NCBI GenBank assembly: GCA_029253085.1
Contig: JAQXAF010000148.1
Location: 1 to 56,481, forward strand
Source: Luminiphilus sp.
GTDB taxonomy: Bacteria > Pseudomonadota > Gammaproteobacteria > Pseudomonadales > Halieaceae
DNA: 56,481 nucleotides
Direction of reading: 5' to 3'
A program made the position numbers and the translations under genes. Under the pieces are notes generated by a model. It was not told the DNA's origin, made no database searches, and saw only the letters and a list, made by a program, of their open reading frames with translations. Shown here one piece after another: positions 34,381 to 56,481 of the stretch (position 1 is its first letter; every line of letters begins with the position of its first letter).

Positions 34381-34399
34381 TAAAACTCCCTGATCTGAT

Positions 34400-35203: not shown

Positions 35204-35205
35204 GT

Positions 35206-35862: not shown

Positions 35863-35898
35863 GGACAAGCTGCTCTTATTATTTTCTGGCTAATACGT

Positions 35899-37536: not shown

Positions 37537-37544
37537 AGAAACAG

Positions 37545-39310: not shown

Positions 39311-39618
39311 TTTCTTTCTCCAATTCCACCACTATGGTGTTTTCAAGTTCTTATTGGTTTAAACTTGTTCGGAACAAGTTTAAACTAGCTAGCAACTTAA
39401 ACAACCCCATTTAGTGCATCAAATTCTTCGCCGGAGCCTGCAGGTCCTGCAAAGAACACAATTCAAGGACTCTGCTGTACGTTGCTTGTTTGCGTTCAGC
39501 AAGTCTACACTTATCATTACATAACACCGGCCCGGCCGCACCTTTGAACGACAGAGACCCGTCTGTAAGCTCGATAGAGGCGAACCCGGCACAACGCGAT
39601 AGATTGAGGAGAGAACCC
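39311..39618. other. 308-base divergent intergenic region (SDR operon / acyl-CoA dehydrogenase)
   Basis: No gene is supported. Besides the perfect palindrome at 39357-39385 the region holds TGCTTGTTTG near 39483, which resembles one type-1 half-site without its partner. Confidence 0.5.
39357..39385. promoter_or_regulatory. Perfect 29-bp palindrome, type-2 operator
   Basis: Arms of 14 bases (GTTTAAACTTGTTC and its exact complement) flank a single central base. It lies 47 bases upstream of the SDR that heads the operon containing TetR regulator 2, and 233 bases upstream of the divergent acyl-CoA dehydrogenase. Length and symmetry are those of a high-affinity TetR operator. Autoregulation by TetR 2 is inferred. 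Confidence 0.8.
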
Positions 39619-40914: not shown

Positions 40915-41045
40915 AGTAACGCACTGGAAGCTGTCGGGTGATTCGATACGCGTGGGCATAGAGCCTGCAGCTTCCAAGTCCCCAACAGTGTAAACAGCAG
41001 CGCTATTGAAATCCCCACCTAATGCCCGAGATCGGAGTTAATACG

Positions 41046-43109
41046 ATGAGCCTGTTCAAACTCATGACGTTTTTTCTGACCGTGCCGACGGTAGTTCAGG
41101 CCTCCCCGGCCGCGGAAGTGTTGTATGAAGAACACTGCGCCTCTTGCCACAGTAGCAGTTTGCGTGGCTCCGCCCATGGCGCGGCATTAGCAGGAAAACC
41201 CTTTCTCGATAAGTGGCGCGAACAAGATGCGCAAGCGCTTCTTAGCCTGAGCATGAGCAGCATGCCCCCCGGAGAATCACACACGCTGTCCCAAGACGAA
41301 CATGTCTCACTGGTTCAATACCTAATTGAGCAAAACGCCCCGTCGCTACAGGACGCCAACTTGCTGGCAAGTGCTGAAGCTCTCAAAGTCAGCAAGGGCG
41401 GTGCAGAACCGGAAGCCGTCGAATTTTCTGGGGCCGATGCCGTCATGGACATGGCGCGAAATGCAGGTCAATTTGAACCACGAACGATTAAGGGCTTTCG
41501 CCCAGTCACCACTGCTGATATCAATACCCCCCCCGACGCCGACTGGCTGAACTGGCGACGCACACCCGATGGTCATGGACACAGCCCACTTCAGGCGATT
41601 AATCGATCCAATGTTCGTCAATTGGGTCTAAGTTGGTCCATCGCCATGCATCAAGGCAGTAACCAGGGAACGCCCCTGGTCAGAGATGGCGTCATGTTTC
41701 TGACCCACCCCAACAACAAAATACAAGCTATCAACGCAGCCACAGGGGATCTTATTTGGGAATATCAATATATGTTCCCCAAGGGTTCTAGGCTGCTTGG
41801 CGGGCCAACACGCAACATAGCCATTTTTGAACATCGCTTATTTCTTGCCACCTATGACGCCGCCGTCGTGGCCATTGATGCACGTAGCGGCCAGCAGTTG
41901 TGGCGCAGCGAAAAAGCCGATTATCGCGAAGCCTTTACCCACAGTGCCGGACCCATTATCGCCGATGGCATCGTGGTAAGCGGCATTAATGGCTGCGAGC
42001 TGTTCACTGATGATGGTTGTTTCATCACAGGGCACGACCCTGCAACCGGCGCAGAGTTGTGGCGCACCTCGACCCTCGCCCTTCCGGGCTCTCCTGAGTT
42101 TGAGAGTTGGGGAGAGATTGCCGCGGATCGGCGAGGCGGCGGTGACATGTGGATTGCGGGTTCCTATGACGCTGAGCTCGAACTCGCAATTTTTGGCACT
42201 TCACAGCCAAAACCCTGGGCGGCGGTGAGTCGAGGGATGTCTACAGGTGATGCAGCGCTCTATACCAACTCCACTTTAGCCATTGATCCCAAAACTGGTG
42301 AAATCGCTTGGTACTTTCAGCACATACCGGGCGAGACCATCGATATGGAGGTCGGGTTTGAGCGAATTTTGGCCACCACTGACGGCGTACCTGTGGTCAT
42401 GACAGTCGGTAAAGACGGCATCCTTTGGAAGCTTGATCGCCGAACCGGTAAGTACATTGACCTCATGGAAACTATGGAACAAAACATATTTACTGTGAAC
42501 CGGGACACCGGTGCTTTGACATACCGCAGCGATATTGCCAACGCGAGCATCGGGGATACCTTCACAGCCTGTCCGGGTATTTACGGTGGTCATAACTGGC
42601 AATCAGCAACCTTTGACGAGACTGCGCAACGGCTTTTTCTACCGGTGCACCAGCTCTGTTCCGACATGACGCCGCGAGCGGTCGATTTAGGGCCCGGTGG
42701 CGGGGGCTACGGTGCTGATGTCGCGACCTATGCCATGCCAGGTAAAGAAAACACAGTGGGTAAACTCATCGCTATTGACGTGGTCAACATGAAACCAGTG
42801 TGGGAGGTCGAGCAGGCGGCCCTATTCTTGAGCGGCGCCCTAACAACCGATGGTGGGCTTCTCTTTATCGGCGATCTCGACCGGAGATTCAAAGCCCTGG
42901 ACACTCAGACAGGCCAGACCCTGTGGTCAACGCGCCTGCCCGCACCGGCACACGGTTACCCCATTACTTATGCAGCCAACGGCCAGCAGTTTGTTGCTAT
43001 TCAGACCGGCATCGGCGTATTTCGGGCCTTGACCGCTGTGCTATTCCCAGAAATCTACCAACCCGCTGATGGGCAGGGACTGTTCGTGTTTTCGCTCAAT
43101 AACCAGTAG
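41046..43109 (+). CDS. PQQ-dependent dehydrogenase with N-terminal cytochrome c
   Basis: The 687-residue protein has a signal peptide (about residues 1-19), a heme motif CASCH (Cys31, Cys34, His35), then WRRTPDGHGHSPL and propeller repeats such as NKIQAINAATGDLIWEY and GKLIAIDVVNMKPVWE. The family oxidises alcohols or related groups in the periplasm. It lacks the adjacent-cysteine pair of classical methanol/ethanol dehydrogenases; two cysteines 8 residues apart (NGCELFTDDGCF) are present instead. GGAG lies 8 bases before the ATG at 41046. A rhodanese-like exported protein is encoded convergently downstream. Confidence 0.88.
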   Translation: MSLFKLMTFFLTVPTVVQASPAAEVLYEEHCASCHSSSLRGSAHGAALAGKPFLDKWREQDAQALLSLSMSSMPPGESHTLSQDEHVSLVQYLIEQNAPSLQDANLLASAEALKVSKGGAEPEAVEFSGADAVMDMARNAGQFEPRTIKGFRPVTTADINTPPDADWLNWRRTPDGHGHSPLQAINRSNVRQLGLSWSIAMHQGSNQGTPLVRDGVMFLTHPNNKIQAINAATGDLIWEYQYMFPKGSRLLGGPTRNIAIFEHRLFLATYDAAVVAIDARSGQQLWRSEKADYREAFTHSAGPIIADGIVVSGINGCELFTDDGCFITGHDPATGAELWRTSTLALPGSPEFESWGEIAADRRGGGDMWIAGSYDAELELAIFGTSQPKPWAAVSRGMSTGDAALYTNSTLAIDPKTGEIAWYFQHIPGETIDMEVGFERILATTDGVPVVMTVGKDGILWKLDRRTGKYIDLMETMEQNIFTVNRDTGALTYRSDIANASIGDTFTACPGIYGGHNWQSATFDETAQRLFLPVHQLCSDMTPRAVDLGPGGGGYGADVATYAMPGKENTVGKLIAIDVVNMKPVWEVEQAALFLSGALTTDGGLLFIGDLDRRFKALDTQTGQTLWSTRLPAPAHGYPITYAANGQQFVAIQTGIGVFRALTAVLFPEIYQPADGQGLFVFSLNNQ

Positions 43110-43200
43110 CCCAAGCTGCGACGTGGCACCGGCATCATGATGGGCCTGATGTCAGACCCCAGGGCAAATGCAACGGCCCTTGTCACTACAATACTCAGCC

Positions 43201-43221
43201 GCGGGCTGGTAATCAGCCCGC
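43201..43221. terminator. Hairpin between convergent PQQ dehydrogenase and rhodanese genes
   Basis: A perfect 8-bp stem GCGGGCTG/CAGCCCGC has a 5-base loop. No T tract follows, so termination is uncertain. Confidence 0.4.
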
Positions 43222-43327
43222 CATGCTCGGTTAAAACCTAAGGCCCTTCACAAATCGAGCTCAAGGCGTGGAGTGCCAAATAACCGTCTGGGCCACAGGC
43301 GGGTTTAACCTCCAACTAACACAGCGA

Positions 43328-43894
43328 CTAAAAATCACCCTCGACAGTCGTCAGACCTAAGGCGTCCCAGTCCAGCATACCGCCGCGGTAGTAGTAGATT
43401 TTGTCCGCAGGAAAACCGTCTCGAATCATGGCGCGCATCGCTGTTGGGCTTTGGGGGCAAACGGGACCGTTACAAAACCCCACTACATTCATGGCACCCG
43501 CGCAGTCCCAACCTGCTGCGCCTTTACTACAACCGAGCTCATCCATGCGCATGGCCACTTCGGTGTAAGGAATATTCACAGCGCCGGGAATCGTGGCGTC
43601 TGAAAACCAGTCTTCAGTGCGCATATCGACCAAAATAAAACCGGGGTCATTGATGGCATTGAGCACCTCAATTTCCGTCACCGGCACAATGCCTGGCTCG
43701 GGCACCAGCGGCTGCAACCAGCCTTTGTTTTTGGCACAAGGGGTCATTTGCCGAGTAACTGACACCTCCTTTCCCGAGGCGAGAGTGACAACAAACGCTT
43801 TGTCTTCACCTACAATCCTTAAATTGTCTGCCTGCACCGAACCCCCTGATACGGCGGTACTGAACAGCATGATTACCGCAATTAATCGTCTCAT
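43328..43894 (-). CDS. Exported rhodanese-like domain protein
   Basis: The 188-residue protein has a signal peptide (MRRLIAVIMLFSTAVSGG) and a rhodanese-like domain: FILVDMRTEDWFSDATIPGA and the active loop GFCNGPVCPQS with Cys141 and Cys146. It resembles the rhodanese-like exported proteins associated with PQQ-dependent catabolism, although the CXXCW motif of that family is not exact here. Its convergent position after a PQQ dehydrogenase supports a periplasmic accessory role. GGAG lies 8 bases before the ATG at 43894. Confidence 0.83.
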   Translation of the reverse strand: MRRLIAVIMLFSTAVSGGSVQADNLRIVGEDKAFVVTLASGKEVSVTRQMTPCAKNKGWLQPLVPEPGIVPVTEIEVLNAINDPGFILVDMRTEDWFSDATIPGAVNIPYTEVAMRMDELGCSKGAAGWDCAGAMNVVGFCNGPVCPQSPTAMRAMIRDGFPADKIYYYRGGMLDWDALGLTTVEGDF

Positions 43895-44263
43895 CAAAAG
43901 ATCTCCTATCAAGACTCAAACGAGTCGCCATCCAAAAAGGTTATTTATTTTTAGTCTTAAGATATAACATAAAAGCATAATGGATTAATCGGGTAAACCC
44001 ACGCAAACCGATCATTTACAAGCTCTCTGACTGTGCCCCAAAACACAATGACTAAAATTCAACCCCACCACCTTTTGAACGATCCGTTTTGCAAAGGCCA
44101 GTAACCATGAAGGTATGGGGTGTTAAACTAGCCCCGCCAATAACGCCGAGGCCCTGTCGTTGCTGAACTTACTGACCACTCATAATTTTTGTGCAATCGT
44201 TGTTAAGGCTGGTTACTGCCACCTTTTTTATTCTAAAAAAGCGTCCAGTAAAGGGTCAAAGCG
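43895..44263. other. 369-base divergent intergenic region
   Basis: The region lies between the rhodanese-like and O-antigen-ligase-like genes and is AT-rich near 43945-43980. It should contain both promoters, but no motif can be assigned and no gene is supported. Confidence 0.4.
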
Positions 44264-45511
44264 ATGGTAATAACGCGACTACTCAAGTACTCGCTGGCTT
44301 TGTTTGCCATCTCGCCTTTGATTAACGTGGGGCCCGTCAATGTCACCGCGCTATTACTCCTTCTCGCCAGTGCCCTGCAGCTGTCCACCCAACCACAACA
44401 GTTTTCTGTGTTCTGGAGGCAATACTGGGTTTTCATGCTGACGATGGTGGCCCTGACGAGTGCATTTCTGCTATCAAACCTGCTCAACAACAACCCAAGC
44501 ACCTTGGACGCAACTTTTGCACAGAGCCGGTGGTTTCTGCTGCTCGCGGTTGCATCACCTGCCGTTGTTTGCAATCTCAACACCAGAGACTGGGGCGACC
44601 TTGGTTATTTTTCCGCATCGATAGCACTTTTGTTGACTGCAGTTTATCTTGTCGATGCATTCACCTACCTGACACTTGGGTCCAATTTTATACTTGACCT
44701 CATCGATGCGCAGCGCGGTGACCCACTCCGACCTTCTTGGGTTTTCAACCCTCATCCGTTTTCTAGAACGTTACTTGCCGCCATGCTGCTGTTGCTCGGG
44801 TGTATCCTCGTATCCAACCGTCGAGCATTGCGCGCCATATGCTGTTTTGGAGTCCTTGGCCTTGGAGCTTTACTGGTTCTAGGCGCCGTGCGAACCGCAT
44901 TCATTGCGGTCGCCGTACTGGCCTGCTTGGGCGTATTTTTTTACCGAGATAAGAAACTGTTGAGCAGTTTGAGCGTGGGCCTGCTTCTCAGCGCTCTGGG
45001 GCTCTGGTTTAGGAGCCAACTCTTTCCACTTGCCCAGACAGATAAAAGCCTTGGACTCCGTGAAGCACTCTTTGAACAGGGCGTAGATACTTTTTTGGCT
45101 GCCCCTTGGTTTGGTGGTGGCTATCAGGCGGCTCGAGCCATTAGCTGGCCCTCTGAACTACAAAAATTCACTGGCGCTCAAACCCTGGAAACCACCAACA
45201 CCCATGTGCAGTGGCTGGAAATGTTAGTCAGCTACGGACTGCTAGGCGGCCTACTTTTTACAGCGCTTTGGCTGCTAAGCGGGTGGCTGGTGTTCAGGGT
45301 ATCTTCTCAGTGCAGCGGCACTCGAAAACTTGCTGGGGTTCTGCTCTTCCTTAATTGGACCAGCCTAACAATCGCAAGCTTCACCACAGTTTACCGTGAG
45401 TCAGAGTGGGCGCTTTGGCTCCTAACGCTGCTCGCATCACTGAGCCTGATTGAGCAGCAAAAAAAATCGAATGACGAAACGCACACCACGAGCGGCGCCG
45501 CTGGCCTTTAG
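44264..45511 (+). CDS. O-antigen ligase-like polytopic membrane protein
   Basis: The 415-residue protein has about ten hydrophobic segments, a large periplasmic-type loop near residues 255-315 (TFLAAPWFGGGYQAARAI and TNTHVQWLEMLVSYGLLGG), and the GxG/NxHxxxLE-like pattern of the O-antigen ligase/polymerase (Wzy_C) family. It would act in the inner membrane in cell-surface polysaccharide assembly. AAGGG lies 8 bases before the ATG. It has no evident link to the catabolic genes and may mark a module boundary. Exact role is unclear because this family is highly divergent. Confidence 0.78.
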   Translation: MVITRLLKYSLALFAISPLINVGPVNVTALLLLLASALQLSTQPQQFSVFWRQYWVFMLTMVALTSAFLLSNLLNNNPSTLDATFAQSRWFLLLAVASPAVVCNLNTRDWGDLGYFSASIALLLTAVYLVDAFTYLTLGSNFILDLIDAQRGDPLRPSWVFNPHPFSRTLLAAMLLLLGCILVSNRRALRAICCFGVLGLGALLVLGAVRTAFIAVAVLACLGVFFYRDKKLLSSLSVGLLLSALGLWFRSQLFPLAQTDKSLGLREALFEQGVDTFLAAPWFGGGYQAARAISWPSELQKFTGAQTLETTNTHVQWLEMLVSYGLLGGLLFTALWLLSGWLVFRVSSQCSGTRKLAGVLLFLNWTSLTIASFTTVYRESEWALWLLTLLASLSLIEQQKKSNDETHTTSGAAGL

Positions 45512-45587
45512 GGCCGTTCAGCACGCTGCGAAAGCTCAATCAGAACAAAGGCGGCTCTTAGACCCATCAGCGTCGCCAATGCCTACC

Positions 45588-45623
45588 GTTACCGACGCCG
45601 TTACCGACGCCGCTACCGACACC
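45588..45623. repeat. Three tandem copies of a 12-base unit
   Basis: GTTACCGACGCC occurs twice exactly and once with two changes, in the 192-base gap between the convergent O-antigen-ligase-like and SDR genes. It could be a slipped-strand repeat; no function is visible. Confidence 0.6.
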
Positions 45624-45703
45624 CCCTCACTAAGGTTAAAGGCAACTGAAAGTGCTTCGTGCGCCCGCAGAGCTGCCCCATGGTGGTCTGCTAAAGCGCC
45701 AGC

Positions 45704-46540
45704 CTACAACCCACTCTTTCCCGCCTCGCGGAGAATGGGCTGGTACTCGGCAAAGTTAGGATCCCCGGGCTTCGACCCCGTCGTGAGCCCCGCATCAATT
45801 GCAATGGTTTGACCATTCACATAACCCGACTCCTCTGATGCCAGCCAAAGCACGGCATTGGCGACATCCTCAGGCATGCCCGCGCGCCCCGGAAGCGGTG
45901 ATAATTCCGCAAAGGTAGGGAGAGCTTGTTCAACGCCATCAGGATCACCCACAGTGGCCGCTGCCGCCAATGGTGTGGCTATGAGCCCCGGCGCCAAACA
46001 ATTGACCCGCACACCAAAAGCACAAGCCTCTGCTGCTAAGTTTTTCGTGAGGCCTACTACGGCATGTTTAGCCGCCGCATAGGCATGAGGCCCAAGCCCG
46101 CCCATCACGCCCGCTGTGCTGCTCATACTGACAATCGATCCGCGGCCAGCACGTTTCATGTGACCCGAGGCGTGCTTCATGCCATAAAAAACGCCGTTTA
46201 AAAGAATGTCTAAGGTGAATTTCCACTCGTCAGTGGGCGTGGTGTCCATGGGGCCAATAGCTCCCACAATGCCCGCATTATTAAACATCACATCAATGCG
46301 CCCGTGAGTCGTAATGGCCGCCTCAACCAAACCTTTCACGTCCTCCTCTCGAGTGACATCGCAGCGCAAACCGATCGCTCGGCCATTGAGCGATTCGACA
46401 AAAGCGGCTAAGCGATCTTCTTGGATATCGCCCAGTACGACTTGGGCACCATGGGCAACTAATTTTTCTGCCGTCGCCGCGCCAATGCCACTAGCACCGC
46501 CAGTGATGACAGCCACCTGACCTTCCAGTCGTCTTTCCAT
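45704..46540 (-). CDS. SDR-family oxidoreductase
   Basis: The 278-residue protein has TGGASGIG, NNAG, SMSSTAG, YAAAK, and VNGQTIAIDAGLTTG, a canonical SDR with a C-terminal extension (KPGDPNFAEYQPILREAG). GGAG lies 8 bases before the ATG. It follows the SnoaL-like gene by 35 bases and is the last gene of the TonB receptor/SnoaL/SDR run, so it may process an imported substrate. Confidence 0.88.
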   Translation of the reverse strand: MERRLEGQVAVITGGASGIGAATAEKLVAHGAQVVLGDIQEDRLAAFVESLNGRAIGLRCDVTREEDVKGLVEAAITTHGRIDVMFNNAGIVGAIGPMDTTPTDEWKFTLDILLNGVFYGMKHASGHMKRAGRGSIVSMSSTAGVMGGLGPHAYAAAKHAVVGLTKNLAAEACAFGVRVNCLAPGLIATPLAAAATVGDPDGVEQALPTFAELSPLPGRAGMPEDVANAVLWLASEESGYVNGQTIAIDAGLTTGSKPGDPNFAEYQPILREAGKSGL

Positions 46541-46575
46541 TTACTGCACTCCTAAATCTTGGCAGTCATCGCTGA

Positions 46576-47160
46576 CTACACTGAGGGTAGTTGATAGACA
46601 AAGTCATCTGGAAAACGCTGACCCACAACACTGGCATGTAGGGCAGACATGCCCCGTGCCGAGGGTGGGTCAAGACGCATCCAATCGGTCATGCCGGTAC
46701 GGTGGATAATTTTCCAACAACCATGACGCAGCTCAAATTTATCGAGATATCGACCTCCGACAAAAAAATCCATTTCGGTATCAAAAGCATCAGGCCCTGC
46801 TAGAGGGTCACCCGCCCCACGCATCTTGTGAAACGCCGTGAAATACGTCTCGACGTGGGCCGTCGTGTCGCCCGTCAGCTCGATCAGCGTATTCCCCAAC
46901 TGATGGTGTGTTCGCGCATGGGTCTTCAAAACTGCCATCGCGTAGCGCACAAAATCCCCGGGGTCGTCGTCAGTAGCCAATCTATCCGGAGCCGAAGACG
47001 GCCCCTGATAGAAGTGGTTATGCGCTGACTCAGGATGAAATAGTGTCCTCAACAGCGCCTCATCTAGGCGGTCAATGGCCCGTGCGTAACGGACCACCAC
47101 CTCGAGAATTTCCTGCTTCGCCAATAACTGGGAAAGAGCGTCGCTCACGACCTCACTCAC
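46576..47160 (-). CDS. SnoaL-like / NTF2-fold protein
   Basis: The 194-residue protein has LLAKQEILEVVVRYARAIDR, LFHPESAHNHFYQG, THHQLGNTLIEL, and GCWKIIHRTGMTDW, typical of larger SnoaL-like proteins. I place the start at a GTG (47160) that overlaps the end of the TonB receptor gene by 8 bases; the open frame extends upstream but only inside the receptor. The start is uncertain within about 12 bases. The overlap suggests translational coupling with the receptor. Function unknown. Confidence 0.75.
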   Translation of the reverse strand: MSEVVSDALSQLLAKQEILEVVVRYARAIDRLDEALLRTLFHPESAHNHFYQGPSSAPDRLATDDDPGDFVRYAMAVLKTHARTHHQLGNTLIELTGDTTAHVETYFTAFHKMRGAGDPLAGPDAFDTEMDFFVGGRYLDKFELRHGCWKIIHRTGMTDWMRLDPPSARGMSALHASVVGQRFPDDFVYQLPSV

Positions 47161-49381
47161 CAAAGTTCCAGACGATTTCGGCGCCAATGGTTCTTGGTGG
47201 GCGAGTTGCTGCATATGACCATAGACCTGCCACATCGTAACCGTGGGTATAACCGTCCTCATCTGAGAGATTGCGTCCAAACACGCTCAAGCGAAGATCG
47301 TTAATTTCCCAGTTAACCGACGCATCGAGCAGATGCTGACCATCATTCTTGAGCTCAGGCGCATTTGTCACGTTAACGTAATGCTCGCCTAAGTAATGGT
47401 AGGCTCCGCGAACCCAGATACGACCACTCGCCGTTGGCCACTCGTAGGTCGCATCGACGGTGCCGGTTAAGTCGGGTGCACGACGAAACTCAAGGTAGCT
47501 AAAGTCGACCTCTTGACCGCTTTGTAAATCGGTATAACCGAAGCTGTCATATTCGGTATCGAGATAACCCACGTTGGCTCGCAATGTCAGACCTTCACCA
47601 ATGATCGCCTGGGCTTCCAGCTCTACACCCCAAATCTCAGCTTCCGACGCATTGGTAACAACCGTCTTTTGCCCCGTACCGGTATCGGAAGGCAGCTGTA
47701 ACTCTTCCTGCTTATCATCGTAAACCATGTAGAACACAGCACCGTTAAATCGCAGCCGATTGTCAGAACTCTGATGCTTAAAACCGAGTTCGAAGTTATT
47801 AACCGTCTCTGGATCGTATGGTTGTGTCGCCTCCTCCGGTGAGTTGACCCGGCCGTTGAATCCACCCGACCGGTAACCCGACGAGTAAGTCGCATAGGTC
47901 ATCAGACTATCACTCAGCTCATAACGCAGGCTCGCACGTGGCGTAAACTCACTCCAAGATTCGTCAGCACTCGCCGTTACGTTGCCCGTTTGCTGAGTGC
48001 TCTTTTCGTCTTTCGTGTAACGCCCGCCAAAGTTCAACGTCAAAGCGTCAGTAATGCGCCAGTCGACATCCGCGAAAAGGGCTTGAGACTCGCTGTCTTG
48101 TTGCGTTTTCTGCAAGATATCGAGAATAGTGCCGGGAACGACAAAGCCCACCCAAGAACGTAACGGAATCTCATACTCAGAGTCCCAGAGATAAGCACCG
48201 ACCACAGCGTTAACGGCACCGCCGTTATCCCACCCCAACCGAAGCTCGTGGGACTTTTGCTCGTAGGTCGCTGGGCGAGTCGTTCCATACAAAAAGTCAG
48301 GCGTACCATCCCAGTTAGAAATGATCGTCTCGTCAGATTCGTAGCTGCCAAAAACATAATCGACGCTGATAGCGTCGGTTGCCTGCCAGCGCGCTTCAAT
48401 GATGTGCGTATCAGCATCGAATGTGGCCGCCATCTCGGATTCTACGGCCTGCCCAGGGGTAGAAAAAGCAATAATCTGATCGCCCGGATCGGGTGGAATG
48501 AAACCCACATTGGCGGTTTTGCGTCGATCACCCGTGATGGTTGAATCTACGCTGGGAGAGCAATAACCATAACCTGAGCAGAAAACGTGACGTGCCTGAC
48601 CGGTATTCAGCAGCGGTGGCGTGTCTTGGTCGGTTTCCTCAAACTGCCCCGTGTATTCGAGCTCGAGATTATCCGTAGGTGTCCAAAGAATGTTTGCACC
48701 AAATGATTGGTAATCATTGCGGCCGACATCGCGGCCGATTTCATCATTGTCGTAGTAGCCTTTACTCTGGTCGCGCTTCGCCGCAGACAACTTCACACCG
48801 ACGTTTTCACCCAGGCCAAAGTTAAAAATACCATCCATGTAATATGTATCGTACTCCTCGTAGCCTGCGCGAATCTTGCCGCCCAATTCTCCAGTGGGCT
48901 TGCTGCGAGTGATATTGATGATGCCGCCAATCGTATTGCGGCCAAACAGCGTGCCTTGTGGGCCCCTGAGCACTTCCATGCTTTCTATGTCGATGCTGCG
49001 CAGTAAACTACCGGCATTTGAACCGATAAACATGCCATCAACAATCACACCAACAGCGGGGTCAAAGTTTTTCTCAACATCGGCAACACCCACACCGCGG
49101 ATAAAGATTGCAGCAACCCCACCGGGCCCTTGAGCGGTATCATCAATGACAATGTTGGGTGAAATATTGGCAAGATCTGTTATGTCTCTAGCGAACTGCC
49201 CTTCAATTTCAGACTTGGTCAGTGCGCTCACAGAAAAGCCAACATCCTGTAAGTTCTCAGAGCGCTTTCGAGCTGTAACGACCACCTCTTCGAGGGCCAT
49301 TTCCTGCGCTTTTAATTCTACCGTTGCCGTTGCTGAAACAATGCCAGCGAGTACTGCAATTGCTAAGGGATGCTTTTTCAT
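47153..49381 (-). CDS. TonB-dependent outer-membrane receptor
   Basis: The 742-residue protein has a signal peptide (MKKHPLAIAVLAGIVSATAT), a TonB-box-like EEVVVTARKR, a plug domain with GVIVDGMFIG and MEVLRGPQGTLFGRNTIGG, and a long beta-barrel ending in an aromatic-rich strand (IVWNF). It imports a bulky ligand across the outer membrane. GGAG lies 7 bases before the ATG. The overlapping SnoaL-like gene and the SDR downstream suggest uptake of an organic catabolic substrate rather than iron, but this is inference. Confidence 0.92.
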   Translation of the reverse strand: MKKHPLAIAVLAGIVSATATVELKAQEMALEEVVVTARKRSENLQDVGFSVSALTKSEIEGQFARDITDLANISPNIVIDDTAQGPGGVAAIFIRGVGVADVEKNFDPAVGVIVDGMFIGSNAGSLLRSIDIESMEVLRGPQGTLFGRNTIGGIINITRSKPTGELGGKIRAGYEEYDTYYMDGIFNFGLGENVGVKLSAAKRDQSKGYYDNDEIGRDVGRNDYQSFGANILWTPTDNLELEYTGQFEETDQDTPPLLNTGQARHVFCSGYGYCSPSVDSTITGDRRKTANVGFIPPDPGDQIIAFSTPGQAVESEMAATFDADTHIIEARWQATDAISVDYVFGSYESDETIISNWDGTPDFLYGTTRPATYEQKSHELRLGWDNGGAVNAVVGAYLWDSEYEIPLRSWVGFVVPGTILDILQKTQQDSESQALFADVDWRITDALTLNFGGRYTKDEKSTQQTGNVTASADESWSEFTPRASLRYELSDSLMTYATYSSGYRSGGFNGRVNSPEEATQPYDPETVNNFELGFKHQSSDNRLRFNGAVFYMVYDDKQEELQLPSDTGTGQKTVVTNASEAEIWGVELEAQAIIGEGLTLRANVGYLDTEYDSFGYTDLQSGQEVDFSYLEFRRAPDLTGTVDATYEWPTASGRIWVRGAYHYLGEHYVNVTNAPELKNDGQHLLDASVNWEINDLRLSVFGRNLSDEDGYTHGYDVAGLWSYAATRPPRTIGAEIVWNFGE

Positions 49382-49487
49382 GTCGTTGCTCCGGTGATAA
49401 TTTTATTTATAGATTATAGTTTTCGTGTGATCTTGGTCTTTTAGCCTGCTTAAAAATAATGCCCCCGTAAGTCAGTGGGCGCTGTCT

Positions 49488-49955
49488 TTATTCTGGTTTG
49501 CTGAGTGTGTCTCCCTCAAAACTATTGAAATAATGGATGACAACATCGCGCCGGCGGATCTTCCAAACACCCTGACGACGCTCCACCTGATCGGTATACG
49601 TGGCTCCCACAAACGTCGCATCAGCACTACCCGCTAATAGGCCGGTACAGTCCACGTCGCAGCATGCTGTCGCGTGATCGGGATCAGAGAATTCCACGAC
49701 TTGATTGGAGGTAATGTGTTGACTCATATCCCACGCTGGCCATAGCACATCGTGAAGTGCACTCAGAATACCGCCATGCCCAGCGAAATCACCGAAGGGC
49801 GGGCCGATAGCCCAAACGCAGTCTTCCCACCATATACTCAGAAAGCGCGCTTCATCGCGTTTATCAAAACCGTGGCAGTAGAGTGAGGCGAGGTCCTCAA
49901 TCGCTTGACGGCTTTCTAACCGGTCAATCTTTGACTGCAATTCGTCAATATCCAC
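49488..49955 (-). CDS. SnoaL-like / NTF2-fold protein
   Basis: The 155-residue protein has LESRQAIEDLASLYCHGFDK, WWEDCVWAIGPPFGDFAGHG, and WKIRRRDVVIHYF, a SnoaL-like domain. I chose the GTG at 49955 because GAGGGGG lies 8 bases upstream; the longer open frame has no such site. It lies about 190 bases downstream of the F420 operon and 106 bases upstream of the TonB receptor. It could belong to either transcript. Function unknown. Confidence 0.78.
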   Translation of the reverse strand: MDIDELQSKIDRLESRQAIEDLASLYCHGFDKRDEARFLSIWWEDCVWAIGPPFGDFAGHGGILSALHDVLWPAWDMSQHITSNQVVEFSDPDHATACCDVDCTGLLAGSADATFVGATYTDQVERRQGVWKIRRRDVVIHYFNSFEGDTLSKPE

Positions 49956-50141
49956 TGCGATGGCCCCCTCATGTCTGACCCAGCACACGTCTGCCACATT
50001 CTCTTTGTAGCATGATGCTTCTAGCACCCTGCTTCCTAACAGCTTGGCGGTATTTTTATTTGGCCGCCGCCGCGTTGAGCGGCTTGTTTGTCACTAGCAA
50101 GCTAAAAAAAAGCGAGACTGTCGTCAACCCCTCTTTAGCCT

Positions 50142-52514
50142 TCAGGCCAGCTTTTTTTCTGCTTTTATTTTTGCCACCGGCTGTTCAAGGGGCAAAATCT
50201 GCAAAATCTCTGGCTGCATTTGCGCTTTTCGCTCATCGGGAGGCGATCCATAAAGTGTTGTTCGCTGTAACGGCAAGCGATCCGCCTCAAGGATTGCTGA
50301 TTGCATGGCCGCTGGCGACCAGCACTGACCATGGCCCGCCCCGGCAGCACGAGAAATACTTTCATTCATAAGGCAGCCGCCGAGGTCATTTACGCCGAGC
50401 TCCAGACAATGCAGAGCCTCTGTTGGTCCCAGCTTTGTCCAGGAGGCCTGAATATTCTGAATGACATCACCAAGAACTATTCGCGCGATGGCATGCATAC
50501 CCCGCGACTCCTCCCTCGTGGGCCCCGGTCGAGCCTGCCCTCGACGATAAAGGGGCGCCTCCCGAGCCACGAAAGGCAGTGGTACAAATTCTGTAAAGCC
50601 CCCTGTTTGAAGTTGTAACTGACGTACCGCTAACAAATGCGTCGCCCAATGCTCTGCATGGTCTACATGCCCGAACATAATTGTTGCTGTGGAGCGCAGC
50701 CCGACCCGGTGTGCGGCCGCCATAGTATCCAACCACTGGCGGGCACTGAGCTTGTCAGGGCAAATTTTCGCGCGCACCTGATCGTCTAATATTTCCGCCG
50801 CGGTCCCGGGAACGGTATCTAATCCAGCTTTCATCAAAATCCGCAGGTAATCATCAATACCCAGCCCAAGCGTCTGAGCCCCATGGTGCAATTCGAGGGG
50901 GGAAAAGGCATGCACATGTAAACCAGGCTCAGCAGCTTTCACCGCCTCTACGATTGTGCGGTACGTATTGCCGTCGTACCCAGGATGAATTCCTCCCTGC
51001 AAGCAAACCTCCGTGGCCCCCAGGTCCCAGGCCTCAGAAGCTCGGCGGGCTAACTCGTGGCCCGTTATATCGTAAGGGCGCTCTCGCCCCTCTGACTTAG
51101 GAAGTCCTTTTGAAAACGCGCAGAACGCGCAGCTGTATTTACACACATTAGTATAGTTAATATTACGATTAACGACGAAAGTAACTGTCTCCCCTACCTG
51201 CTCCGAACGCAGCTCATTTGCGCACTCATAAACCGCTTCTCGATCTATATCAACGGTCTGAAACAGACGAACAACATCACCGTGCTCCAAAGCTTCACCG
51301 CGGCGTCGGCGACCGAGTAGTTTCAGAATCTCACGATCCTGAGTCAGCAGAACAGGACTCATCGAGACCGATTGGGAACCTAATTCAGGCTCGCCGGGGC
51401 GCCATTTATCCGAGCGTACTCGCCCCTCAGAATCTGTGACCTCTAAACATCGAGGACGTATGCGGTCGTCTAGCCAGCTGGGGTCATTGAGATATTTAGC
51501 ATAAACCGGCAACCGCGCCTTCAATATTTTTCCTGCCGCCTCCGTGGCCGCTGACAGTCGGATAATTTCCGGCCAAGGTGCCTCGGGATTGACGTGATCG
51601 GGAGTTACAGGTGAAACACCACCCCAATCGTTTAACCCTGAGTCCGCGAGCTCTTGAAGGTCTTTCGGAGACAAATTGGGAGGAACTTGAATGCTGATAT
51701 CAGCTGGCAAAATCAATCGAGCAGCCGCAATTGTCCAAAGCAATTCCTGTATCGAGACATCGGGCCAACTTGCCATTCGAGTCCCGCTTTTGGCACGGAA
51801 ATTTTGAATAATAACTTCTTGAATGTGTCCATACTGGGCATGCAACCGCGCAATACTTTTTAAATCACTAATGCGCTGAGTGCGGTTCTCACCGATGCCC
51901 AAAAGCAGCCCCGTCGTAGTGGGTATTTTTAGGCGCCCCGCGCGAGCAAGTGTTGCCAGCCGTCGCCAGGGATTTTTATCGGGGGAGCCAAAGTGCGCAC
52001 CATCCCGCGCCAGCAGCGCGGGTGAACCCGACTCAAGCATCAAGCCAAAAGACCCCATGACTGGGCGTAACTGTGCTAACTCAGTACGAGAGAGTGTCCC
52101 CGCGTTCACGTGTGGAATTAACGTTGTCTCTTTGATGATGAGTTTACAAGCAGCAACGACATACTCAACCGTACTTGAGTAACCGTTTTCCTTCAGCCAC
52201 TCCCGAGCCGCCTTATAACGGAGCTCAGGTTTTTCACCGAGCGTGAGTAACGCCTCAGTGCACCCTGCAGCTTGCCCTTCCCGGGCCACCGCCAAAACCT
52301 CATCAAGGGTCATATAAGCCGCTTTCAGCCGACTCGGAGGCTGCGCAAACGTGCAGTAATGACAAACATCGCGGCAGAGTTGCGTGAGTGGTATGAACAC
52401 TTTGGGGCTGTAGGTAATCACTCGACCAAAACTGTCATCGCGCAGTTCCCGCGCATGACTGATCATGGCGGCAAGCTCTGTCGTTGCCTCAACGGACACA
52501 GCTCTATCCCACAC
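50142..52514 (-). CDS. fbiC: FO synthase, fused CofG/CofH (FbiC-type)
   Basis: The 790-residue protein joins two radical-SAM domains in the actinobacterial FbiC order. The N-terminal CofG-like half has Cys47, Cys51 and Cys54 (LCRDVCHYCTF), and the C-terminal CofH-like half has Cys458, Cys462 and Cys465 (VCKYSCAFCAFSKG). It makes the deazaflavin FO, the F420 chromophore, from tyrosine and a flavin-pathway intermediate. I place the start at a GTG (52514) with AAGGGA upstream, 17 bases after the cofC stop; further upstream frame lies within cofC. It is the last gene of the F420 operon. In many bacteria the two halves are separate genes. Confidence 0.93.
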   Translation of the reverse strand: MWDRAVSVEATTELAAMISHARELRDDSFGRVITYSPKVFIPLTQLCRDVCHYCTFAQPPSRLKAAYMTLDEVLAVAREGQAAGCTEALLTLGEKPELRYKAAREWLKENGYSSTVEYVVAACKLIIKETTLIPHVNAGTLSRTELAQLRPVMGSFGLMLESGSPALLARDGAHFGSPDKNPWRRLATLARAGRLKIPTTTGLLLGIGENRTQRISDLKSIARLHAQYGHIQEVIIQNFRAKSGTRMASWPDVSIQELLWTIAAARLILPADISIQVPPNLSPKDLQELADSGLNDWGGVSPVTPDHVNPEAPWPEIIRLSAATEAAGKILKARLPVYAKYLNDPSWLDDRIRPRCLEVTDSEGRVRSDKWRPGEPELGSQSVSMSPVLLTQDREILKLLGRRRRGEALEHGDVVRLFQTVDIDREAVYECANELRSEQVGETVTFVVNRNINYTNVCKYSCAFCAFSKGLPKSEGRERPYDITGHELARRASEAWDLGATEVCLQGGIHPGYDGNTYRTIVEAVKAAEPGLHVHAFSPLELHHGAQTLGLGIDDYLRILMKAGLDTVPGTAAEILDDQVRAKICPDKLSARQWLDTMAAAHRVGLRSTATIMFGHVDHAEHWATHLLAVRQLQLQTGGFTEFVPLPFVAREAPLYRRGQARPGPTREESRGMHAIARIVLGDVIQNIQASWTKLGPTEALHCLELGVNDLGGCLMNESISRAAGAGHGQCWSPAAMQSAILEADRLPLQRTTLYGSPPDERKAQMQPEILQILPLEQPVAKIKAEKKLA

Positions 52515-52531
52515 CCGACTTTCCCTTGGCC

Positions 52532-53233
52532 TCAACACGATATGTTCGCATTTTGCTGAGTAGCGACGGGAGCTTGTATCCGCCACATCACGCCTGAACT
52601 GCGTGCCGCTAACACCCATTTTTGTGTTGCTGGACCTAAAGACATCGCCGCATTTCGGCCCCACAACAGCGCATGCAATCCAGCCGGCGTATCTACATCA
52701 AAGGACAAGCCGGGCCTTTCCAGAACGACACGACGGTCGCTGCAAATGTTGCGCCTATATTCTCGAAAGCTGTTACCACCAAAACGAAAGACTGGTATGT
52801 CATCAGCGCTGAACGCCACAGCATTGGTCCCGACATTTTGATCATCGGGACAAATCACCGTCTTGCCTTTATCAAAAGCGGTGCTTAACGCCTCCAAGTC
52901 CGCAGCAGCTAGCCCCGGCAAATCACCAAATACAACAATAATCCGTTCGCCAAAAAGCCTATCGATACCCGCAGCGAGGATCTCGTTAAGACCAACACCG
53001 CCACACTCGTCCTCTCGGATAACTTGCAATTTTGACGCCGCAGGCAGCATAGGTGGCCAACCAGGCCCCTGAAGAATAGTGAGTGAACGGCAATCAGACC
53101 AAGCGAGCAATGTTACGACCACATCTTGTACCATCGCCAACATCAAGTCGCTACGCTGACTATTAGTCAGCACATCAGCAAGGCGGCTCTTAGCCTTGGG
53201 CAACGCCTTCAGGGGCAACACTACGTCAAACAA
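52532..53233 (-). CDS. cofC: CofC/FbiD-type phospholactate (or PEP/3-phosphoglycerate) guanylyltransferase
   Basis: The 233-residue protein has the nucleotidyltransferase motifs LPLKALPKAKSRL, FGDLP, GTNAVAF, FRFGGNSF and DVDTPAGL, all typical of CofC. It attaches GMP to a 3-carbon phosphoacid for transfer to FO. Known homologues differ in using 2-phospholactate, phosphoenolpyruvate or 3-phosphoglycerate, and the sequence does not settle which applies here. It overlaps the cofD end by 8 bases. The C-terminal 40 residues extend past the usual fold and look less conserved. Confidence 0.92.
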   Translation of the reverse strand: MFDVVLPLKALPKAKSRLADVLTNSQRSDLMLAMVQDVVVTLLAWSDCRSLTILQGPGWPPMLPAASKLQVIREDECGGVGLNEILAAGIDRLFGERIIVVFGDLPGLAAADLEALSTAFDKGKTVICPDDQNVGTNAVAFSADDIPVFRFGGNSFREYRRNICSDRRVVLERPGLSFDVDTPAGLHALLWGRNAAMSLGPATQKWVLAARSSGVMWRIQAPVATQQNANISC

Positions 53234-54188
53234 AACGTTTTACTTCCTCAATCAGCTGGCCAGCCAGCGCTATTTTTTGTGTCGTATCTGTCATCATGGT
53301 GTCACATGTAAATACACGTTCACCGCGTAACCGTAGCACCTCCGCGGCGTCTTGATCTCGTCTGTCTAAAACCCAAAGGTCAACCAGTCCTGGATGCAAT
53401 GTCTTCATTTCATCCACCCACGATAACGCGGTCGGCTCCAGCCCTCGGTCAGCCATCATTTTTGCGAGAGGCCCTTTAATAGCCGCTCCATCAACAATGG
53501 GAGCGACTGCCACAACCTGAGCAGCACGCGTCAACGCTTCAACAATACCCGAAATGGCCAACATAGGGGCCAGACTGAGATAAGGGTTTGACGGACCCAA
53601 AATAACGCAGTCGCAACCTGCTTGGAGAAAAGCAAGCAAATCAGGCGCTGGAGCGGCCTCGATCGCGCCTTGATATTCTAGCGATTCGACCTTGGGCTCA
53701 CACCGGCGCCCAACAAAATAAGATTGAAAGTCTAAGTCACCCTCCGCCGTTGTAAGAACCGTACGAACTGATTGTTCTGAAGCGGGCACAATCTGAAGTC
53801 CTCGAATACCGAGTCTCTCAGCAAGATTGCCTGTAATGCATGTCAAACTTTGCCCCGCATCTAGCCCTTCACGACGCAAAAGGTGCATGGCAATATCACG
53901 ATCGCCCAACTGAAACCAGCTAGGCCCCCCTAAGCGCTCCACCTCGGCAAGCACCGACCAGCTCTCACTCTCACGCCCCCAGCCACGTTGCGCATCAATC
54001 GCGTCCGAAACTGCGTACAGAACACTGTCGGTATCGGGGCATACCAGCAACCCAAGATGCTCGAAGTCATCACCCGGATTCGTAAGTACTAAAGTTTCGG
54101 CGTGTTGCACAAGCCCATAGAAACCCCGAGCCAATCTGGCACCACCCCCGCCACCCGCTAGGAGCACTGTCCTAAGCCGCGGACTCAT
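53226..54188 (-). CDS. cofD: CofD/FbiA-type 2-phospho-L-lactate transferase
   Basis: The 320-residue protein has the family N-terminus VLLAGGGGGARLARGF, NPGDDFEHLGL, WFQLGDRDIAMHLLR, LTCITGNLAERLGI, and GPSNPYLSLAPMLAISGI. It transfers the activated phosphoacid to FO, giving F420-0 or dehydro-F420-0. The usual LAGGVGGAKL reads LAGGGGGARL here, a mild change. The stop overlaps cofC by 8 bases and the start overlaps cofE by 4, a tight operon. Confidence 0.93.
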   Translation of the reverse strand: MSPRLRTVLLAGGGGGARLARGFYGLVQHAETLVLTNPGDDFEHLGLLVCPDTDSVLYAVSDAIDAQRGWGRESESWSVLAEVERLGGPSWFQLGDRDIAMHLLRREGLDAGQSLTCITGNLAERLGIRGLQIVPASEQSVRTVLTTAEGDLDFQSYFVGRRCEPKVESLEYQGAIEAAPAPDLLAFLQAGCDCVILGPSNPYLSLAPMLAISGIVEALTRAAQVVAVAPIVDGAAIKGPLAKMMADRGLEPTALSWVDEMKTLHPGLVDLWVLDRRDQDAAEVLRLRGERVFTCDTMMTDTTQKIALAGQLIEEVKRFV

Positions 54189-54952
54189 CGAAACATATCT
54201 GCCGAATGAGGGCGCAATAAGGCACGCGAACTCCGCGGTTCACCAGAAGATCGTGAACAGCCTCGAATCCAGACAACCGGATTTCCCTCAGCAGCCTCGC
54301 CCTGCACTAGCGCAGCTGCAGCGGCGAGACCATCTGCCGTAGCGGGTTCAGTCACTCGAAGCTCATTGCCATAAAGATCCCGTTCGCCAACCTGATTCCA
54401 GAGCGGGTCAAGACCCGCAACGCCGATCGCATGACCCGTCGTTCCCAGGCGCCACGCCCGGCCCATACTGTCGTTAATAATGACCGGAACTTCAAATCCG
54501 TAGTTCTTGGAAAACCGCTGATTAAGACCAGAGGCACTGGCGTCTGGGTCTTGGGGCCATAACAAAACCCGCTCCTCGTCATCCTGAGCAATATTTGAGG
54601 CATCGATGCCAGCGTTTGCAAGCACGTGCCCACAGCAGTGCTCTGCAATAATAAGGCCGGGACGAGACCGTACAATTGTTCTCGATTCCGACAAAATGAG
54701 CTCTACCAAGCGCGCATCCTTCCCCGTCTCAGCCGCGAGATCAGTCGCTGCAACACCCGGTGAAACTGATGCCAAGGCGACCAATCGATCCTCAGCCTTT
54801 GACACTATTTTCTGGGCGATCACTAAGATATCGCCGGGCTCGGGTGCGAGCGCTTGCCGCGCAGTCGCAGAAACAATCAGAGCCACCAGATCGTCACCTG
54901 CAGTCACCTTGGGCAAATGCTCAACCGCTGTAAGAGTAAGCGTTGCTGGCAT
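54185..54952 (-). CDS. cofE: CofE-type F420-0:gamma-glutamyl ligase
   Basis: The 255-residue protein has GDILVIAQKIVSKAEDR, NAGIDASN and INDSMGRAWRLGTTGHAIGVAG, the family's GTP/metal and substrate motifs. It adds glutamates to F420-0. It is a single-domain protein without the C-terminal nitroreductase-like domain of mycobacterial FbiB. That domain reduces dehydro-F420, so another enzyme may do so here or the precursor is already reduced. The ATG start follows npdG by 7 bases. Confidence 0.93.
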   Translation of the reverse strand: MPATLTLTAVEHLPKVTAGDDLVALIVSATARQALAPEPGDILVIAQKIVSKAEDRLVALASVSPGVAATDLAAETGKDARLVELILSESRTIVRSRPGLIIAEHCCGHVLANAGIDASNIAQDDEERVLLWPQDPDASASGLNQRFSKNYGFEVPVIINDSMGRAWRLGTTGHAIGVAGLDPLWNQVGERDLYGNELRVTEPATADGLAAAAALVQGEAAEGNPVVWIRGCSRSSGEPRSSRALLRPHSADMFR

Positions 54953-54959
54953 TAGGCCA

Positions 54960-55631
54960 TCAAACCCCAGTTATACGAATGCCTGCATGGGTTTTATACT
55001 GCTTATTGATGTTGATGAGTATAGACGTCAGCGCCTCAGCCGCGGCGGCGTTATTGATCATGCCCGCGTGAAAGCCCCTCACATCAATAATTTGGAGAAT
55101 ATCAATTACCTGTTGCCGGGCCTCTTTGTTGTTGCCAGTAACGAGAACATCACAGTCTATAGTGTCGTCACTATTGAGGTGTGCTGCCGCCACGTTCTGC
55201 ATTGCACTGACGACCCGAACATTGTCGCCTAGCGCGACTTGCGCCAACTGGCCTGCACTACCGCCCTCGGGCAGCTGCACTCTTGCCACTTTTGGGGGCA
55301 CCAGAGGCACGGTCACATCAACCACAACTTTGCCCTGAACAGCCTCATGTATGCTCTCTAATGTAGCGCTATGTGCGGGAAAAGGTACCGTGACAAACAC
55401 TAGGTCTGCTGCAGTTGCCGCTTCAGAATTGCTAGCGCCCGATACCTGTAGCGCTCCCCATCCAGAGGTCTCCCCTAAGTTTTTAAGCGCTTCGGCAGCA
55501 CCCTGTGCTCCACTTTCATTGCGGGAGCCGACAATGACTCTAAATCCTGCTCTGGCCAATCGACGAGCTAAACCCGTACCAAGATCGCCGGTGCCACCAA
55601 TGATGCCCACCGTTATTGCACTTGTTTCCAC
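54960..55631 (-). CDS. npdG: F420:NADPH oxidoreductase
   Basis: The 223-residue protein has the N-terminal NADP-binding motif VGIIGGTGDLGTGLARRLA followed by GSRNE, then LVFVTVPFPAH, VVDVTVPLVPP, VSAMQNVAAAHL and NNAAAAEALTSILININ, as in Fno/NpdG enzymes. It exchanges hydride between NADPH and F420, so reduced F420 can be supplied without a hydrogenase. I place the start at a GTG (55631) with GAGGG 8 bases upstream. It leads the F420 operon. A weak type-2 inverted repeat lies about 75-90 bases upstream. Confidence 0.9.
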   Translation of the reverse strand: METSAITVGIIGGTGDLGTGLARRLARAGFRVIVGSRNESGAQGAAEALKNLGETSGWGALQVSGASNSEAATAADLVFVTVPFPAHSATLESIHEAVQGKVVVDVTVPLVPPKVARVQLPEGGSAGQLAQVALGDNVRVVSAMQNVAAAHLNSDDTIDCDVLVTGNNKEARQQVIDILQIIDVRGFHAGMINNAAAAEALTSILININKQYKTHAGIRITGV

Positions 55632-55956
55632 GATAAAACCCTCTACTTGACCTGCTATGGTTGACAAGCGCTAACGGCTTGCAGTTGTATAGTGTTACCA
55701 AGAGACTTGCTGAACACAAGTAAGTTTAGCAAACTCCACCTTAGGTCAGCCAATTCGCCAGACATTATAATGGGCCCGCGGCAGGAAAGAGATGGCAGCG
55801 AGCAACCTAAACACTGCTGTAACCGCTGCAAGCTAACGATGTAAACCAGACTTATCCTTCGGTGCCATCGTTTTCACTAAATGCCACATTGGATCGACTT
55901 GAAGAATCAACAACACTGCCCATGACAAAGCAGAGATTTTCACGAGGGAACGAAGA
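55632..55956. other. 325-base divergent intergenic region (F420 operon / Baeyer-Villiger monooxygenase)
   Basis: No gene is supported; the region should hold promoters for both directions. It contains the inverted repeat at 55705-55721. Confidence 0.5.
55705..55721. promoter_or_regulatory. Inverted repeat ACTTG-N7-CAAGT, weak type-2 operator-like site
   Basis: The 17-base element has the same arms and spacing as the sites at 2597 and 39363, but the inner 7 bases differ at most positions. It lies 74 bases upstream of npdG. By eye these three are the only ACTTG-N7-CAAGT matches in the window, and all are intergenic. Confidence 0.4.
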
Positions 55957-56481
55957 ATGCAATCATCACAAACCACTGATTTTGACGCCATTGTCGTAGG
56001 TGCAGGCTTCGCAGGTGTAGCGCTCACCCACTACTTACGCGAGGCCGGACTCACCCTCAAAGTGTTTGATCGTGCTCCCGATATCGGCGGCACTTGGGCC
56101 TGGAACAAATACCCGGGCGCAGCAACCGATAGCGAGGGTTATTACTATTGCCTAACCTTCTCAAAGGAGGTGCTTGAGGAGTGGACCTGGTCCAAGCGCT
56201 ACCCCGGATGGGAGGAAACTCAAAATTATCTTCGCTTCGTAGCCGATAAGTTTGATATGTGGCCACACCTGCAATTCAATACCGAAATAACCCGCGCAGA
56301 ATATCAAGCGGACCGTGGGATTTGGATTGTTACTACGGGCGACGGCGCGACCCATACCTGCCGATTTTTCATTAGTGGTATGGGCATGATTTCACAACCG
56401 CAGATCCCTAACATTCCCGGCCAAGCCACCTTCAAAGGTCCCTGTTTTCATTCTTCTCGTTGGCCTGAGGGACTTGAATTT
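55957..56481 (+). CDS. Baeyer-Villiger type flavin monooxygenase, N-terminal part, cut by window edge
   Basis: The first 175 residues are present. They show the FAD-binding motif VVGAGFAGVALTHYL near residue 14, IGGTWAWNKYPGAATDSE, and the type I Baeyer-Villiger fingerprint FxGxxxHxxxW in FKGPCFHSSRWPEG. The family inserts oxygen into a ketone to give an ester or lactone using NADPH. GAGGG lies 9 bases before the ATG. It is divergent from the F420 operon. An ester or lactone product would fit the alpha/beta hydrolase at 34.4 kb, but that link is inference. Confidence 0.92.
   Translation, partial: MQSSQTTDFDAIVVGAGFAGVALTHYLREAGLTLKVFDRAPDIGGTWAWNKYPGAATDSEGYYYCLTFSKEVLEEWTWSKRYPGWEETQNYLRFVADKFDMWPHLQFNTEITRAEYQADRGIWIVTTGDGATHTCRFFISGMGMISQPQIPNIPGQATFKGPCFHSSRWPEGLEF

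What the first reader, a model, noticed from the sequence alone, without database searches (positions are those of the whole stretch)
50142..55631. Complete coenzyme F420 operon in a Gram-negative-looking catabolic region
npdG, cofE, cofD, cofC and fused fbiC lie in one tight run with 4- to 17-base junctions or overlaps. F420 is best known from archaea and actinobacteria; proteobacterial carriers are known but sparse. The surroundings (TonB receptor, PQQ dehydrogenases, Rieske oxygenases) suggest F420H2 serves xenobiotic or steroid-like catabolism here.
Basis: partly seen in the sequence, partly recalled or inferred. Interest (0 to 1): 0.78.

Follow-up and report, generated by a model that had tools for sequence, protein, structure and literature searches.

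The report
Coenzyme F420 operon in marine Halieaceae
A marine Gram-negative bacterium carries a complete gene set for the rare redox cofactor F420 beside a degradation gene cluster, and comparison with relatives points to one neighbouring enzyme that probably uses the cofactor.

Summary
In detail: npdG, cofE, cofD, cofC and fused fbiC form one tight minus-strand operon, open and under purifying selection. It is not actinobacterial contamination by context: the block is collinear in a sister species and, with small gene losses, in two named Halieaceae MAGs. Nor is F420 sparse here: CofH passes its cut-off in 47 of 61 sampled genomes of the family and 80 of 293 of the order. The operon itself is a new member of a known kind.

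The catabolic reading is partly supported and can be sharpened. The neighbouring catabolic cluster also exists in two F420-less genomes, so most of it does not need F420. But the luciferase-like oxidoreductase (LLM, 33376-34413) at its end is present in 15 of 15 F420+ and 0 of 2 F420- carriers of the cluster's marker gene, and its predicted fold ranks nearest to F420-dependent enzymes. It is the best candidate F420 enzyme. CofC has the 2-PL/PEP-type residue and CofE lacks a dehydro-F420 reductase domain, so that step is unassigned.

Unexpected: the operon block is 93-99% identical to the sister species while the flanks are 74-93%, suggesting recent exchange of the operon (assembly chimera not excluded). 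No F420 has been measured; the operon's deeper origin is unresolved.

The parts
54960..55667 (-). npdG, NADPH-dependent F420 reductase (likely start GTG 55631)
   Evidence: TIGR01915 190.4 bits, cut-off 149.8; start context
54185..54952 (-). cofE, F420-0:L-glutamate ligase, single domain, no FbiB-type nitroreductase domain
   Evidence: TIGR01916 266.9 bits, cut-off 180.65; 255 aa; the FbiB model PRK13294 matches only at its positions 11-243 of 449
53226..54188 (-). cofD, transfers the phospho-C3 unit to FO
   Evidence: PF01933 118.2 bits; TIGR01819 248.5 bits, just under its 257.45 cut-off
52532..53233 (-). cofC, guanylyltransferase; Gly at the position that is Ser in 3PG-activating enzymes
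   Evidence: TIGR03552 110.2 bits, cut-off 105; residue table
50142..52664 (-). fbiC, fused CofG-CofH FO synthase (likely start GTG 52514)
   Evidence: TIGR03550 484.1 and TIGR03551 526.8 bits, both over cut-off; the cysteines of both radical SAM motifs are invariant in alignment A1 of 9 sequences
33376..34413 (-). LLM (luciferase-like oxidoreductase), proposed F420 enzyme; most aligned orthologues start at about residue 12 of this ORF
   Evidence: PF00296 180.9 bits; co-occurrence with F420; fold ranking; TIGR03619 136.7 bits, under its 166.9 cut-off
34400..50027 (.). conserved catabolic cluster: ABH, TetR, AMP ligase, APH, SDR, ACAD, PQQ dehydrogenase, SDR, SnoaL2, TonB receptor, SnoaL1 (rhodanese and O-antigen-ligase genes lie within it)
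   Evidence: Pfam; collinear in F420+ and F420- genomes
55957..56481 (+). start of a divergent Baeyer-Villiger-type flavin monooxygenase (FMO), cut by the window end
   Evidence: PF00743; the full gene in sister G280 is nearest to cyclohexanone monooxygenase
49500..56481 (.). block of raised identity to the sister species G280, centred on the F420 operon
   Evidence: 500-base windows 93.4-99.4% v 74.2-92.6% over 24.0-49.5 kb; dS

Best explanation
This is a working F420 biosynthesis operon of a marine gammaproteobacterium (Halieaceae, named through its relatives). FbiC makes FO from the riboflavin intermediate and tyrosine; CofC activates a phospho-C3 acid (2-phospholactate or phosphoenolpyruvate rather than 3-phosphoglycerate) with GTP; CofD joins it to FO; CofE adds the glutamate tail; NpdG passes hydride between NADPH and F420. 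If phosphoenolpyruvate is the substrate, a dehydro-F420 reductase outside the FbiB type must exist. A main user of F420 in this genus is most likely the LLM at the far end of the neighbouring catabolic cluster, acting on an intermediate of a terpenoid-, alicyclic- or steroid-like substrate. Shown: the genes, their openness and constraint, the synteny, the co-occurrence of LLM and F420, the fold ranking. Inferred: cofactor production, the C3 acid, LLM cofactor, direction and substrate. The confidence given is for the operon; for the LLM step alone I put about 0.65.
For: Family models; dN/dS 0.06-0.23 against the C122 allele; CofH over cut-off in 47 of 61 family genomes. PF04075, a family of F420H2-dependent reductases, is in 43 of 47 CofH+ and 1 of 14 CofH- genomes (G329 again). 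The window LLM's orthologue is in 19 of 61 genomes, all CofH+; among the 17 carriers of the full-length ACAD marker at 78% identity or more, 15 of 15 CofH+ have it (14 on the same contig, 4.3-5.1 kb from the ACAD) and 0 of 2 CofH-. In F420-less G301 the cluster runs collinear to the hydrolase and stops where the LLM would be. The LLM's predicted fold (mean pLDDT 79.3) ranks first with FGD1; 11 of the first 13 Foldseek rows, chains of 7 entries, are F420-dependent enzymes. LLM genes recur beside F420 operons: two clusters represented by PF00296 proteins occur in 25 and 20 of 81 loci. G000 and its sister G280 have no PF04075, and G000's one PF01243 protein is PdxH.
Confidence: 0.8

Rival explanations
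1. The operon makes F420, but the LLM beside the catabolic cluster is FMN-dependent; F420 serves other enzymes (such as the TIGR03619 protein on contig C64) and sits here only by linkage.
For: PDB sequence ranking favours luciferase-type chains; the C64 LLM is over the TIGR03619 cut-off, 171 v 166.9; a RutA-like LLM (C33) is likewise shared by G000, G280, G342 and G344; in G106 the cluster and the operon are on different contigs.
Against: LLM orthologue found only in CofH+ genomes (19 of 19) and missing in both F420- marker carriers. Fold ranking led by F420 enzymes. The C64 protein has a close match (96%) only in G280; none over 32% among the LLMs of G342 and G344.
Confidence: 0.25
2. The raised identity of the operon block to G280 is an assembly chimera: a G280-like strain's operon was joined to this genome's flank, and contig C122 holds the true local allele.
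For: The MAG holds two alleles of the locus (C108 and C122, 85% nt) and has 3.19% estimated contamination. C122 against G280 gives 85.2% over 11.7 kb in one alignment.
Against: The edges are graded rather than abrupt: 100-base windows of 87-100% over more than 1 kb at the npdG/FMO side and 73-100% near 49.2-50.2 kb. The block itself differs from G280 by 1-2% in its middle.
Confidence: 0.4
3. The operon came into this genus from outside the family (a second F420 lineage in Halieaceae) rather than by descent.
For: The clade of window, G280, UBA4452 and AH-287-B15 stands apart from other Halieaceae in the CofD, CofGH and concatenated trees; two congeners lack F420.
Against: One-clade tests with other Halieaceae are not rejected (AU p 0.758, 0.278, 0.499), and in two of the three the held tree had the higher likelihood; nor is one clade with the wider Pseudomonadales block (p 0.492). 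Long branches may cause the split: at like RpoB divergence (89.8 v 89.1%) F420 proteins differ more in this genus.
Confidence: 0.4
4. Contaminating actinobacterial DNA binned into a proteobacterial MAG.
For: AU tests do not reject grouping with Actinomycetota (p 0.423, 0.317).
Against: One contig with a TonB receptor and O-antigen ligase gene; collinear in G280 and, with small losses, in UBA4452 and AH-287-B15; even GC of 0.498-0.551 along the window. In the trees Nonomuraea, Rhodococcus opacus and Paenarthrobacter branch elsewhere; only Miltoncostaea and Rhodococcus sp. ZPP come near the base of the proteobacterial rows.
Confidence: 0.01

Closest known systems
Proteobacterial F420 operons, e.g. 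Croceicoccus marinus pCME4A9I, Aromatoleum aromaticum EbN1 plasmid 2, Paraburkholderia sprentiae plasmid
   Same: fused-length FO synthase with npdG, cofE, cofD, cofC in one run or close by; Croceicoccus also has LLMs, an SDR and NTF2-like genes beside it
   Different: Gene order differs (fbiC last here); CofD identity 39.0% (Aromatoleum), 44.2% (Paraburkholderia), 47.2% (Croceicoccus, over 71% of the query); those three are on plasmids
Actinobacterial F420 pathway (FbiA, FbiB, FbiC, FbiD)
   Same: fused FbiC; Gly at the CofC/FbiD diagnostic position
   Different: CofE is single-domain, without the FbiB reductase domain; TIGR03553 over cut-off in 0 of 293 order genomes
3PG-F420 pathway of Mycetohabitans (PMC8764529, passages read)
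   Same: betaproteobacterial pathway using CofC/CofD/CofE homologues
   Different: The diagnostic Ser/Thr of CofC is absent here and in all 40 CofC collected
TIGR03619 F420-dependent LLM oxidoreductases and FGD1/Mer-type LLMs
   Same: TIGR03619 is the best NCBIfam match of the window LLM; FGD1 heads the fold ranking
   Different: 136.7 bits, below the 166.9 cut-off; 20-24% identity to FGD1

Membership tests
F420 biosynthesis operon | FO synthase (CofG and CofH activities) | tested here: met
   Both equivalog domains over cut-off; whole-FbiC model 1014.7 v 1018, just under
F420 biosynthesis operon | CofC, CofD and CofE | tested here: met
   CofC and CofE over NCBIfam cut-off; CofD over the Pfam cut-off but 9 bits under TIGR01819
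F420 biosynthesis operon | production of F420 | not testable with these tools
   Needs mass spectrometry
3PG-F420 pathway | Ser/Thr at CofC position 162 (M. rhizoxinica numbering) | tested here: not met
   Gly in the window; 36 Gly, 3 Asp, 1 Asn among 40 CofC ORFs clustered from 81 loci; the other loci gave none in that cluster
Actinobacterial FbiB | C-terminal nitroreductase domain | tested here: not met
   CofE is 255 aa and single-domain
F420-dependent LLM (TIGR03619) | score over curated cut-off | tested here: not met
   136.7 v 166.9; it may still work like one
F420-dependent LLM (TIM-barrel, FGD/Mer type) | fold nearer to F420 enzymes than to FMN enzymes | tested here: inconclusive
   Foldseek led by FGD1 and Mer (11 of first 13 rows), but VIA-align ties FGD1 with 2i7g (27.6, 27.4 v 27.2); sequence ranking led by luciferase-type chains
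F420-dependent LLM | binds and uses F420 | not testable with these tools
   Only co-occurrence tested
Actinobacterial contaminant | actinobacterial context | tested here: not met
   Collinear proteobacterial context in three other genomes

The most novel reading that the evidence does not exclude
F420 synthesis and a new subfamily of F420-dependent LLM form an optional two-part module of a Halieaceae catabolic cluster: the cluster persists without them in some genera. In this genus the operon lies next to the cluster, is exchanged between species by recombination, and evolves unusually fast for its housekeeping divergence.
Probability: 0.35. Interest if true: 0.65.

Novelty: new member of a known kind. 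Interest (0 to 1): 0.45.

Why it matters
F420 is mostly studied in mycobacteria and methanogens. Here most sampled members of a marine bacterial family carry the pathway, with LLM and FDOR-A gene content that rises and falls with it. The F420+ and F420- versions of the same catabolic cluster give a concrete natural experiment: one enzyme and one cofactor to test. It also exposes two open steps in Gram-negative F420 synthesis: which C3 acid is used, and which enzyme, if any, reduces dehydro-F420.

Tried and rejected
Contamination: rejected on contig context, not on trees. 3PG-F420: rejected on the CofC residue. FbiB-type reductase: none over cut-off in 293 order genomes; weak nitroreductase matches are in 257 of 293 and were not followed one by one. 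The nitroreductase beside the third CofD hit (contig C5) belongs to a GAK-system-like locus. Neighbour clustering of 81 loci gave 14 clusters in six or more loci: five are the operon genes, four hold known window proteins (SDR, ACAD, AMP ligase, PQQ); of the other five, representatives were two LLMs, one ABC ATPase and two without a Pfam match, so no nitroreductase by representatives. FDOR-A is absent from G000, G280 and G342. FDOR-B: G000's only PF01243 hit is PdxH. A scan of viral contigs with FbiC found nothing. Phylogenetic origin: unresolved. RpoB of G301 was read in a wrong frame and dropped; G000, G332 and G134 had no RpoB match. G329 (60% complete, partial marker) was left out of the 17-genome count.
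Full report
Observation. The window is contig C108 of a 2.29 Mb MAG, 79% complete and 3.2% contaminated. Five minus-strand genes, npdG-cofE-cofD-cofC-fbiC, lie in one run with gaps or overlaps of 4 to 17 bases. Family models confirm each; the CofD equivalog model and the whole-FbiC model are missed by a few bits, in line with divergence. The frames are open, and against the allele on contig C122 dN/dS is 0.06-0.23, so the genes are under constraint.

Host. UBA4452 (handle G343) and G342, a genome of the window's own genus, have the same LLM places and scores and the same length for the operon's contig, 331492, so I take them as one genome; the family name rests on this. In the order sample CofH passes its cut-off in 80 of 293 genomes, and in 10 of the 12 family members listed, own genome included. 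In a family sample it is 47 of 61. Searches of the open-access library for F420 with Gammaproteobacteria, Halieaceae or Halioglobus listed no paper on it by title or abstract. Passages of two listed papers, PMC9088280 and PMC8359052, do not concern this family's F420. Ney et al. 2017 is not held. The review PMC8498797 (passages, and section 9) calls proteobacterial distribution variable and says F420 production is confirmed in Proteobacteria.

Context. In sister species G280 the block is collinear. In UBA4452 and AH-287-B15 the operon also sits between the divergent flavin monooxygenase and the SDR/PQQ/ACAD/SDR/APH genes; UBA4452 has no SnoaL1 or TonB match there and AH-287-B15 no SnoaL2 match. 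G077, G134, G106, G158, L039 and L047 have the operon with other flanks, by tblastn with 16 window proteins.

Natural experiment. The order SnoaL1-TonB-SnoaL2-SDR-PQQ-ACAD-SDR-APH-AMP ligase-TetR-hydrolase is collinear in F420-less G301, and up to the APH gene, where the contig ends, in F420-less G321. In G301 the hydrolase is followed by an unrelated serine-hydrolase-like ORF on the other strand (named by eye), not by the LLM. Across the 61 genomes the LLM orthologue (E <= 1e-60) occurs in 19, all CofH+ (18 at 71-100% identity, G313 at 55%; G298's match holds one stop; Fisher p 0.0028). Among full-length ACAD-marker carriers at 78% identity or more, 15 of 15 CofH+ and 0 of 2 CofH- have it (p 0.0074). 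G329, with a partial marker and 60% completeness, was left out. The genomes are related, so the p-values overstate independence; G301 and G321 are one genus. Four LLM carriers lack the ACAD marker at the cut-off used.

Wider co-occurrence. PF04075: 43 of 47 against 1 of 14. In the order: 53 genomes with both, 27 CofH only, 12 PF04075 only, 201 neither (lists copied). Within the own genus, G000, G280 and G342 have F420 and 4-5 LLM genes; G319 and G332 (98-100% complete) have neither.

Pathway variant. CofC carries Gly where 3PG-activating enzymes carry Ser (position from PMC8764529, passages), so 2-PL or PEP is expected. [quoted passage not shown] None is recognisable here: CofE is single-domain and no genome of the order sample passes the FbiB C-terminal cut-off.

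Exchange. Between window and G280, 500-base windows are 74.2-92.6% identical from 24.0 to 49.5 kb (short unaligned gaps near 33.1-33.3 and 43.9-44.0 kb) and 93.4-99.4% from 49.5 to 56.5 kb. dS is 0.03-0.05 for cofE to fbiC and 0.17-0.20 for npdG, SnoaL1 and the FMO start, but 0.45-0.95 for SnoaL2, TonB, SDR and WzyC. A second allele on C122 differs by about 15%. Recent replacement of the operon by recombination is the simplest reading; an assembly chimera is not excluded.

Trees. The genus clade with AH-287-B15 is supported (99-100) in all three quick trees but stands on long branches apart from other Halieaceae. Tests reject neither monophyly with Halieaceae (p 0.758, 0.278, 0.499) nor grouping with Actinomycetota (p 0.423, 0.317). 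The origin is open. F420 proteins differ more between G280 and G342 than between G077 and G106 at like RpoB identity (89.8 v 89.1%): CofG 62 v 80%, CofH 63 v 77%, NpdG 65 v 82%, CofE 63 v 67%, CofD 48 v 55%, CofC 31 v 40%.

Verdict. A real, native F420 operon, a new member of a known kind.

Noticed in passing
L120 (own MAG contig C122) 8435-13539: Second allele of the F420 locus in the same bin, 85% nt identical, ending inside fbiC; co-binned strain most likely.
   Followed up: partly
L003 1330-3322 (own MAG contig C5): GAK-system CofD-like gene followed by a nitroreductase; not an F420 locus by family models.
   Followed up: partly
window 44264-45511: O-antigen-ligase-like (Wzy_C) gene inside the catabolic cluster, matched only in G280 among the 12 loci compared.
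   Followed up: no
L019, L031 (other families of the order): Separate cofG and cofH genes that group with Paracoccus and Variovorax in the CofGH tree, so at least two F420 lineages exist in the order.
   Followed up: partly
genome G180, contigs C29 and C4: Extra CofH pieces, one with an in-frame TGA, as well as an intact copy.
   Followed up: no
order sample: 12 of 65 genomes with PF04075 lack CofH over its cut-off; some hold partial CofH matches or are incomplete.
   Followed up: no
window 14228-17220: DUF35-thiolase pair followed by a Rieske oxygenase, an arrangement like acyl-CoA side-chain degradation modules (recalled).
   Followed up: partly
window 17231-19958 and 29071-29901: Two ThuA-like genes and a DUF3604 gene of unclear role inside the catabolic region.
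   Followed up: no
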